A DNA stretch of 64,000 bases, from NCBI RefSeq assembly GCF_009831415.1, contig NZ_CP043727.1, positions 1,922,001 to 1,986,000 on the forward strand, given 5' to 3'. Below the pieces are notes generated by a model. It ran no database searches. It was not told where the DNA came from and saw nothing but the letters and a program-made list of their open reading frames with translations. The translations under genes and the position numbers were made by a program. Of the stretch, positions 49,724 to 50,559 are shown piece after piece (the stretch's first letter is position 1; each line of letters opens with the position of its first letter). The stretch is from Yersinia canariae (lineage in GTDB: Bacteria; Pseudomonadota; Gammaproteobacteria; Enterobacterales; Enterobacteriaceae).

Positions 49724-49748
49724 TGTGAGTTCAACGAGTCGATGCACA
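49724..49748 (+). repeat. Left inverted end of the vat cassette
   Basis: TGTGAGTTCAACGAGTCGAT and five more bases, preceded by GC at 49722-49723. It agrees best with the transposase-start end of the IS30 element (55602-55626, read on the minus strand). Confidence 0.75.
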
Positions 49749-49834
49749 AAATTTTTCCGCTCAAGCTAAAAGGTCTACTGACATTATGATGCGTTAGCCT
49801 TCAAAAATTAGAGTCATTCATAGCGGGAGGGAGT

Positions 49835-50461
49835 ATGTACGGACCAGATCCATCCAATACACATCCAATGAAGGGATTTCCTCAGGTTTGTTTTGTCAAA
49901 AATACTGTGACAAATCCAAACATCATAGTGGGTGATTTTACTTATTACGACGATCCAGAGGGCTCAGAAAACTTCGAGCGCAACGTTCTCTATCATTTCC
50001 CTTTTATTGGTGACAAGCTGATTATCGGTAAGTTTTGCGCCATAGCAAAAGGTGTCCAGTTCATTATGAACGGAGCAAACCATAAACTTTCTGGTTTCTC
50101 TACTTTCCCATTTTATATTTTCGGGAATGGATGGGAAAAGTCCATGCCCCAAGCCGGTGATTTACCCTACAAAGGCGATACTATGATCGGCAATGATGTG
50201 TGGATCGGGTATAAAGCGCTGATTATGCCAGGAGTAAAGATCGGCAACGGGGCGATAATCTCTTCACGTTCGGTGGTTACTTCTGATGTACCTGCATATG
50301 CGGTTGTAGGTGGTAATCCTGCCAAAGTGATTAAGAAACGTTTTGCTGATGAAACGATAGCAACGCTGGAAAAACTGGCGTGGTGGGATTGGCCCGTAGA
50401 AAAGATTACTCAAAACCTTACTGCAATAATGTCCAGTGATATCGAAGCATTACAGAACTAA
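49835..50461 (+). CDS. Vat-family (streptogramin A/xenobiotic) O-acetyltransferase
   Basis: 208-aa left-handed beta-helix acetyltransferase. It follows the Vat pattern closely: NPNIIVGDFTYYDD, LYHFPFIGDKLIIGKFCAI, catalytic-type His83 in FIMNGANH, FGNGWEKSMP, GDTMIGNDVWIG, GGNPAKVIKKRF and a C-terminal WWDWP. Vat enzymes acetylate streptogramin A; a chromosomal relative, Vat(F), is known in Y. enterocolitica. CatB-type chloramphenicol acetyltransferases are the nearest alternative, but FGNGWEK and GANH favour Vat. Start ATG follows GGGAGGG. The gene is the sole cargo of the IS30-ended cassette. Confidence 0.88.
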   Translation: MYGPDPSNTHPMKGFPQVCFVKNTVTNPNIIVGDFTYYDDPEGSENFERNVLYHFPFIGDKLIIGKFCAIAKGVQFIMNGANHKLSGFSTFPFYIFGNGWEKSMPQAGDLPYKGDTMIGNDVWIGYKALIMPGVKIGNGAIISSRSVVTSDVPAYAVVGGNPAKVIKKRFADETIATLEKLAWWDWPVEKITQNLTAIMSSDIEALQN

Positions 50462-50534
50462 AAGGTCCTGTTTTTTGGTCTTCACATTCGTGGTACTTAT
50501 GATGTCTGCTTCTGGCACAAAACCGCCTGCAATA

Positions 50535-50559
50535 GTTGCATGCGGCAGTTGAACTCACA
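50535..50559 (-). repeat. Right inverted end of the vat cassette
   Basis: Read on the minus strand: TGTGAGTTCAACTGCCGCAT then GCAAC, followed outside by GC (50560-50561). Agrees best with the left end of the IS30 element at 54406. Confidence 0.75.

What the first reader, a model, noticed from the sequence alone, without database searches (positions are those of the whole stretch)
49724..50559. Vat-type acetyltransferase as sole cargo of an IS30-ended non-autonomous cassette
An 836-bp unit has inverted ends (TGTGAGTTCAAC plus 13 bp) that match, end for end, a full IS30-family element about 4 kb away (21 of 25 positions at each end). It is flanked by the same GC dinucleotide on both sides. The acetyltransferase occupies the place and orientation of a transposase. 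Known IS30-family biology and transporter-IS/mobile-insertion-cassette logic predict trans mobilisation. It would explain how a streptogramin-type resistance gene entered a Yersinia chromosome.
Basis: partly seen in the sequence, partly recalled or inferred. Interest (0 to 1): 0.85.

Follow-up and report, generated by a model that had tools for sequence, protein, structure and literature searches.

The report
Resistance-type gene between IS30-type ends
A small piece of Yersinia DNA carries one antibiotic-inactivating-type gene between the two ends of a jumping gene but lacks the enzyme that would move it; the ends are real, but whether the piece has ever jumped as a unit is not shown.

Summary
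49724-50559 has inverted ends matching the resident 1221-bp IS30-family (ISCfr4-like) element at 21/25 positions each. They score 29.5 and 28.5 bits on a profile of such ends; apart from these and the IS's own ends the best window position scores 6.9. Polarity is right and vat lies in transposase orientation. Homology to unit-free relatives stops exactly at each border (G385 left; G059 right). Vat DNA 92-93% identical occurs in three other Yersinia genomes without the ends.

GC is part of the target (35 of 45 IS half-sites end in GC), so GC/GC is no proof of a duplication. The flanks pair the outer halves of two palindrome arms, a pairing seen in 0 of 81 palindromes and 1 of 15 IS copies, so no clean single insertion is shown. 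The searches run found no joined empty site and no second copy. Lone eroded ends of this IS are common, so an eroded IS-vat-IS arrangement is a serious rival.

Best reading: an IS30-family cassette resembling a mobile insertion cassette, movable in principle in trans (confidence 0.6).

The parts
49724..49748 (+). left terminal repeat, IRL-like
   Evidence: 21/25 to the resident IRL, 23/25 to solo ends in L242 and L207; profile 29.5 bits as IRL, 15.6 as IRR
50535..50559 (-). right terminal repeat, IRR-like
   Evidence: 21/25 to the resident IRR, 22/25 to L237, L171, L160; 28.5 bits as IRR, 20.9 as IRL
49835..50461 (+). vat: Vat-family streptogramin A O-acetyltransferase-like gene, 208 aa, the only cargo
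   Evidence: NF000311 334 bits (cut-off 300); VatF model 366 bits (cut-off 400, not reached); VatA structures 4myo and 4hur, E about 3e-73
49711..49723 (+). left target half-site GTCAGGTAATGGC, overlapping the end of the 101-aa ORF; outer-A type
   Evidence: 8.8 bits, top 3.2e-4 of window positions, top 2.7e-3 if the GC is left out; G385 homology ends exactly here
50560..50572 (-). right target half-site GTCCGCTTCTCGC (reverse strand); outer-B type
   Evidence: 18.5 bits, top 7.8e-6; G059 homology starts at 50561
50504..50572 (.). palindromic intergenic element (P) downstream of vat, 69 bp, with the right terminal repeat inside it
   Evidence: intact 66-bp counterparts in L023 and L025
54406..55626 (-). 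complete IS30-family (ISCfr4-like) element; transposase ORF 54413-55594
   Evidence: NF033563 286 bits; plasmid copies annotated ISCfr4 at 93-94% over full length; four 100% identical copies in the genome
54393..54405 (+). outer half of the palindromic target of the IS
   Evidence: 18.4 bits (in the training set)
55627..55639 (-). inner half of the palindromic target of the IS
   Evidence: 14.6 bits (in the training set)
49414..49719 (+). 101-aa ORF left of the unit, no known family
   Evidence: no Pfam, NCBIfam or PHROG hit; 3 of 392 family genomes besides the own one have a relative
50619..53744 (.). right-hand module: two MFS transporters (-) and a TetR regulator (+)
   Evidence: 93% in G059 over 50561-53772
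53931..54371 (+). GNAT acetyltransferase module
   Evidence: 95% in G059 and 96% in G135, homology ending at 54405
47857..48744 (-). phage-type integrase beside icd
   Evidence: PF00589, phrog_7244; some E. coli matches annotated intE

Best explanation
The 836-bp unit is a non-autonomous IS30-family cassette of mobile-insertion-cassette (MIC) type: about 25-bp IRL and IRR ends of an ISCfr4-like element enclose a vat gene with its own upstream and downstream DNA. Inferred origin: ISCfr4-like insertions into palindromic elements around a vat module, followed by loss of the transposase parts. Inferred mechanism: a full ISCfr4-like transposase, such as those of the four resident copies, binds the two ends in trans, joins them into a circle with the vat gene, and inserts the circle at the centre of a GTCCGCTTnnnGC-type palindrome. 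Shown: ends, polarity, target type, both junctions, complete resident IS copies. Not shown: any transposition of the unit.
For: Ends score 28-29 bits against 6.9 for the best unrelated window position, with correct IRL/IRR polarity. Both flanks resemble IS target half-sites (top 3.2e-4 and 7.8e-6 of window positions). Homology to unit-free relatives stops exactly at each border. Vat DNA 92-93% identical exists without the ends in G003, G013 and G014. Four 100% identical complete IS copies in the genome. Of 40 solo ends of this IS examined elsewhere, 0 have a second end within about 4.2 kb inward; the two other transposase-defective end pairs seen in 392 genomes, in G122 (607 bp) and G079 (880 bp), are internally deleted IS copies without foreign cargo. 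IS30 transposase integrates IS30cat minicircles that lack an intact transposase gene, in trans (PMC9333248, passage).
Against: No second copy in 25 Yersinia species genomes, among 392 family genomes by exact end pattern, or around vat in 99 loci fetched by vat similarity. No genome with both flanks joined (198 genomes with only the two best candidates scored in each, 14 genomes). Flanks are outer-A plus outer-B, a pairing found in 0 of 81 palindromes held and 1 of 15 complete IS copies. The left half-site is weaker, 8.8 bits, between the 10th and 25th percentile of true flanks, and top 2.7e-3 only without its GC. Solo ends left by eroded IS copies are common. The inner part of the right repeat also pairs with the P stem to its left, so some of its similarity to IRR could be P sequence (by eye). 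The 101-aa ORF and the MFS module, now joined through the unit, are not neighbours in any relative seen. In G059 the contig starts 72 bases before the match, so its left context is known for 72 bases only.
Confidence: 0.6

Rival explanations
1. Eroded IS-vat-IS arrangement. Vat already stood here between two palindromic elements; ISCfr4-like copies inserted on each side and each decayed by deletion to about 25 bp. The unit never moved as a unit.
For: Outer-A plus outer-B flanks are what two separate insertions would leave. Solo ends are frequent: of 40 examined, 29 show a blastn match to the IS of 29 to 266 bp from the end inward and 11 show none beyond the end itself. The A arm of vat's own palindrome (50504-50527) and the B half at 50560-50572 span 69 bp, close to the usual 63-66 bp, as if one palindrome had received the right end in place.
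Against: Needs two insertions and two deletions, each leaving the outer end with little else, in IRL...IRR polarity. 0 of 40 other solo ends has a partner within about 4.2 kb. No palindrome half-site of 11 bits or more lies between the left end and vat. A full IS (L161) has the same flank type, so that flank type also arises with a single element.
Confidence: 0.3
2. Left arm of a larger composite: unit left end (49724) to the right end of the IS (55626) forms a 5.9-kb IS30-type composite carrying vat, MFS, MFS, tetR and GNAT.
For: Outer ends of IRL type on both sides; both outer flanks are target half-sites. The relative G385, which lacks the unit, continues GCACTAAGGTGCC, 11 of 13 letters like the right flank of the IS, against 7 of 13 for the right flank of the unit (from, counted by eye).
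Against: The right end at 50559 is then unexplained. The IS sits in an ordinary A arm (inner-A/outer-A), as expected for its own simple insertion. No homology to G385 extends beyond 49723. MFS and GNAT modules occur separately in relatives.
Confidence: 0.08
3. Chance or unrelated conserved sequence at the ends.
For: Part of the right repeat overlaps a palindromic element that is conserved in its own right.
Against: 11 occurrences in the genome, 10 of them element ends; control 1; 28-29 bits against 6.9.
Confidence: 0.02

Closest known systems
MIC231 / IS231 cassettes of Bacillus cereus
   Same: IS ends around a passenger gene in place of a transposase, mobilised in trans by the IS; one variant carries a fosfomycin resistance gene (as summarised in PMC3913671, passages seen)
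   Different: IS231 ends (IS4 family, recalled) and a Gram-positive host; trans mobilisation is reported there, not shown here
mic-qnrD and mic-qnrS2
   Same: resistance gene between imperfect 24-bp repeats (qnrD), 2-bp duplication, no transposase gene (PMC3913671 passages; PMC5444012 and PMC2600179 seen only as listings)
   Different: no matching transposase was found for those elements (PMC3913671 passages); here the matching IS is in the same genome. Cargo differs, and the 2-bp duplication here is not proven
IS30-family composite elements (ISAba125 with blaNDM; Tn4351 recalled, from no call)
   Same: IS30-family IS associated with resistance genes
   Different: these use full IS copies (recalled); ISAba125 next to blaNDM was seen in passages of PMC10903355
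ISCfr4
   Same: plasmid copies annotated ISCfr4 match the resident IS at 93-94% over full length
   Different: autonomous element with its own transposase
Vat(F) of Yersinia enterocolitica (origin recalled)
   Same: best NCBIfam model is VatF, 366 bits
   Different: below that model's cut-off of 400; the surroundings of the published gene were not compared
REP palindromes as IS targets
   Same: IS elements inserting specifically into intergenic palindromes (PMC1525189, abstract)
   Different: different palindrome and IS; identity with REP is not claimed

Membership tests
Mobile insertion cassette (MIC) | IS-type terminal inverted repeats at both ends | tested here: met
Mobile insertion cassette (MIC) | passenger gene and no transposase inside | tested here: met
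   only vat among ORFs of 80 aa or more wholly inside
Mobile insertion cassette (MIC) | cognate autonomous IS available | tested here: met
   four identical complete copies in the genome, ends 21/25 alike
Mobile insertion cassette (MIC) | flanking target-site duplication | tested here: inconclusive
   GC/GC present but GC is part of the target (35 of 45 half-sites) and the flanks are of outer-A/outer-B type
Mobile insertion cassette (MIC) | same unit at different sites, or a joined empty site (supporting, not strictly defining) | tested here: not met
   none; relatives lacking the unit at one border only
Mobile insertion cassette (MIC) | mobilised in trans | not testable with these tools
   needs an experiment
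IS30 family (resident IS) | IS30 transposase, about 25-bp IRs, 2-bp repeat at palindromic targets | tested here: met
   NF033563 286 bits; IRs and targets
Vat family | score above the family cut-off | tested here: met
   NF000311 334 bits, cut-off 300
Vat(F) proper | score above the VatF cut-off | tested here: not met
   366 bits, cut-off 400
Vat family | NGANH motif (catalytic role recalled) | tested here: met
   aligned identically to VatA 4myo and 4hur
Vat family | acetylates streptogramin A | not testable with these tools
   no assay
IS composite transposon | full IS copy on each side of the cargo | tested here: not met
   left side carries a 25-bp end only

The most novel reading that the evidence does not exclude
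Two-arm palindromes (outer A ... outer B, 63-66 bp) act as docking sites in which ISCfr4-like transposase can use both arm centres, so that the palindrome core is exchanged for an element or a passenger gene. Acetyltransferase and efflux modules bounded by such palindromes would then be serially captured and moved by this IS, with the vat unit as one caught product.
Probability: 0.12. Interest if true: 0.75.

Novelty: new member of a known kind. Interest (0 to 1): 0.42.

Why it matters
IS-ended cassettes without transposase have been described for fosfomycin and quinolone resistance genes; for the quinolone ones PMC3913671 reports no matching transposase (passages). Here a vat-type gene sits between IS30-family ends in a genome that also holds a matching IS in four identical, probably recently copied forms, and the same IS occurs at 93% or more on plasmids of Klebsiella, Citrobacter, Enterobacter and Pantoea. 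If the unit is mobile, a resistance-type gene could ride with a common IS and be missed by annotation that looks for transposases. The work also shows that GC/GC 'duplications' next to this IS are uninformative, because GC is in its target.

Tried and rejected
Chance ends: rejected. GC/GC as proof of insertion: rejected. Derivation from the resident IS copies: not favoured, since other ISCfr4-like ends match better. Relatives of the 101-aa ORF in viral contigs and phages: none. Vat in viral contigs: one remote match, 44% over residues 96-168. E. coli genomes: 28 of 5426 genomes match part of the unit, 0 cover 80% of it; none match the right flank. Plasmids: 26 records match the unit, 2 cover at least 80%; in the five fetched (L018-L022) no ends lie around vat. 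Second icd end as an attachment site: no more than short chance-like matches in the window. Rfam: no hit at gathering threshold in 47700-57400. Promoter scan of 49600-50700: 2 sites, both on the minus strand, shuffles 2.2; terminator scan: 2 sites, shuffles 1.1, neither just after vat. Literature: searches on MICs (20 of 24, 20 of 53 and 13 of 13 papers listed), IS30 targets, ISCfr4, IS30 MITEs and vat in Yersinia showed in their listings no IS30-ended cassette with vat; passages seen in five papers, one abstract, the rest as listings. A full-text search for five palindrome strings found 0 papers. Only open-licence PMC papers are covered. One search used a mis-spaced pattern (0 hits in the own genome) and is disregarded; one search is the corrected search. 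The species was not identified; the genus rests on G013 matching the named Y. massiliensis record at the same contig position.

Limits: and one search scored only two candidates per genome, so IS copies are undercounted and a split joined site could be missed. The flank and end profiles were trained on sets that include four identical copies from the own genome. The 81 palindromes were picked with a half-site threshold of 9 bits, which the unit's left half-site (8.8) would itself just miss.

Full report
1. The observation. The stretch 49724-50559 is 836 bp, begins TGTGAGTTCAAC and ends with its reverse complement. The same ends bound a complete 1221-bp element at 54406-55626, whose 393-aa ORF matches the NCBI IS30 transposase model at 286 bits (cut-off 80). 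Plasmid copies annotated ISCfr4 match that element at 93-94% over full length; the closest plasmid copies, without that name, reach 97.5%. The genome (one contig of 4.71 Mb) has four complete copies, 100% identical over 1221 bp, which suggests recent activity.

2. Statistical weight. I built profiles from 22 IRL and 23 IRR ends of ISCfr4-like elements, taken from loci of a search of 392 family genomes (25 with a match at E 1e-100 or better, the own genome included) and further own copies; the four own copies are identical, so the set is not fully independent. The unit's left end scores 29.5 bits as IRL and 15.6 as IRR; the right end 28.5 as IRR and 20.9 as IRL; apart from these and the IS's own ends, the best of about 128,000 window positions scores 6.9. 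In positions 13-25 alone polarity is kept: left 7.5 (IRL) against -6.9 (IRR), right 5.9 (IRR) against -1.0 (IRL).

3. Target. The flanks of ISCfr4-like copies follow GTCCGCTTnnnGC, read toward the element from each side, i.e. a 24-bp palindromic target. The unit's right half-site scores 18.5 bits, in the top 7.8e-6 of window positions. The left one scores 8.8, in the top 3.2e-4, or 2.7e-3 if the GC is left out; left-out scores of true flanks have a 10th percentile of 1.5, a 25th of 11.8 and a median of 14.6, so the left side is a weak but not unusual half-site. Since 35 of 45 IS half-sites end in GC, the GC on both sides is expected and proves nothing about a duplication.

4. Borders. In G385, DNA 84% identical to 49163-49723 ends exactly at 49723 and continues without the unit. 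In G059, DNA 93% identical begins at 50561 and runs to 53772, again without the unit; its contig starts 72 bases before the match, so only 72 bases of left context are known. Three of the other 24 Yersinia genomes have DNA 92-93% identical to most of the unit's interior (query 16-777 in G003, 48-804 in G013 and G014) but not its ends; seven more have vat DNA at 71-73%. So both borders are true junctions and the interior is a vat module known without these ends. No genome searched has both flanks joined (198 genomes with two candidates scored in each, 14 genomes of the genus of G059).

5. Results against a clean insertion. The targets come in two arms: A (outer half ending TGGC, inner half GTGC) and B (outer TCGC, inner GAGC). 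Of 15 complete IS copies held, 5 sit in an A arm, 4 in a B arm, one (L161) between outer-A and outer-B halves, and 5 are other. Of 81 distinct 24-bp palindromes in the loci held, 38 are A, 28 are B, 15 are other and none is outer-A/outer-B; they were picked with a threshold of 9 bits per half. The unit is outer-A/outer-B. A and B arms often stand in one element of 63-66 bp (P), so the simplest reading is that the DNA between the two arm centres of one P, or of two Ps, was lost. This can follow an insertion (IS30 is described as generating deletions as well as insertions, PMC9333248, abstract passage) or come from two separate insertions. P elements are not background: in 20 enteric vat loci (195 kb, chosen by hand) there are 22 half-site pairs at spacing 24 and 4 at 66, against none at these spacings in five Markov-resampled sets.

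6. The right end in its palindrome. Intact counterparts of the element downstream of vat in L023 and L025 are 66 bp. In the window it spans 50504-50572 (69 bp), with the right repeat in place of its inner B half. So the right end most likely arose when an ISCfr4-like copy entered vat's own palindrome and later lost its body, here or in an ancestor. Part of the similarity of the right repeat to IRR at positions 13-25 might be palindrome sequence; the 22/25 match to IRR variants argues that most is not.

7. How common are eroded ends? A corrected end pattern found matches in 56 of 392 family genomes (one search was mis-spaced and is disregarded). From the rows not paired at IS distance I picked 40 by hand and fetched them; more than ten others were left out, some of them near contig ends. 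In one search, 0 of 40 had a second end of 10 bits or more within about 4.2 kb inward (two stretches were shorter, L207 and L234); 29 of 40 showed a blastn match to the IS of 29 to 266 bp from the end inward and 11 showed none beyond the end. Some may share one ancestral event (L233 and L240 have the same end and flank). Two close end pairs without a complete transposase gene were also listed, in G122 (607 bp) and G079 (880 bp); both are internally deleted IS copies, with nothing but IS sequence between the ends. So erosion to solo ends is common, which supports the rival, but a close pair of correct polarity around a foreign gene was found only in the window. In 99 loci fetched by vat similarity (L018-L116, some of them fragments or weak matches) no vat is bracketed by ends; L020, L022 and L047 hold a complete IS 1 to 10 kb from vat or a vat fragment.

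8. The cargo. The 208-aa protein passes the Vat-family model (334 bits, cut-off 300) and not the narrower VatF model (366, cut-off 400). It aligns over its length with VatA crystal structures, including NGANH. Relatives at 92-94% identity carry names from Yersinia frederiksenii, Yersinia alsatica and Salmonella enterica, and at 89-91% from Orbaceae, Erwinia, Pantoea, Enterobacter and Escherichia fergusonii (best 120 of 7880 rows, most of them unnamed). The gene therefore occurs widely, and in the loci checked it does so without this unit.

9. Setting. Left of the unit lie icd, a phage-type integrase and two small ORFs; right of it two MFS transporters, a TetR regulator, a GNAT acetyltransferase and the IS; a tail-fibre-assembly gene follows at 56902. 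G+C differs by module (unit 0.43, MFS-tetR 0.54, GNAT 0.41, window 0.48). The MFS-tetR and GNAT modules occur on different contigs in G059 and apart from the 101-aa ORF in G385, so this is a mosaic region.

10. Verdict. Structure: an IS30-family-ended, transposase-less vat unit, supported. Mechanism: movement in trans by a full ISCfr4-like transposase is plausible and has published precedent for IS30 itself, but is inference here.

Noticed in passing
window 53772-53834, 50504-50572; L018, L020, L023, L025, L041, L146, L148, L149: A family of intergenic palindromes (24-bp arms GTCCGCTTcTGGCAC.. and GTCCGCTTcTCGCTC.., often paired in a 63-66-bp element) lies at the edges of vat, MFS and GNAT modules in Enterobacterales and is the target of ISCfr4-like elements. 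No paper found by five sequence strings.
   Followed up: partly
L205-L244 (40 loci from unnamed family genomes): Many lone ISCfr4-like ends without a partner; 11 of 40 show no IS match beyond the 25-bp terminal repeat. What leaves such short stubs is not known.
   Followed up: partly
L173 (G122, 607 bp) and L168 (G079, 880 bp): Internally deleted ISCfr4-like copies that keep both ends: transposase-defective elements without cargo.
   Followed up: no
L022 (Klebsiella quasipneumoniae plasmid NZ_CP096265.1) 2618-5265: Complete ISCfr4-like element, then an IS5-family element, then an unannotated vat fragment; vat-fragment and end matches at the same spacing also appear in two K. pneumoniae plasmids.
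   Followed up: partly
L036/L033 (G013:C1:1510437-1510663): Second, internally deleted vat copy about 8 kb from the full one in the genome matching Y. massiliensis.
   Followed up: no
window 47857-57270: Phage-type integrase beside icd and, 8 kb on, a tail-fibre-assembly gene: possibly remains of an icd-integrated prophage around the mosaic; no second icd end found.
   Followed up: partly
window 49154-49231: 77-bp stretch about 80% identical to DNA in two family genomes (G058, G128); the 3-kb stretches fetched there show no other match to window 47000-57000; nature unknown.
   Followed up: no
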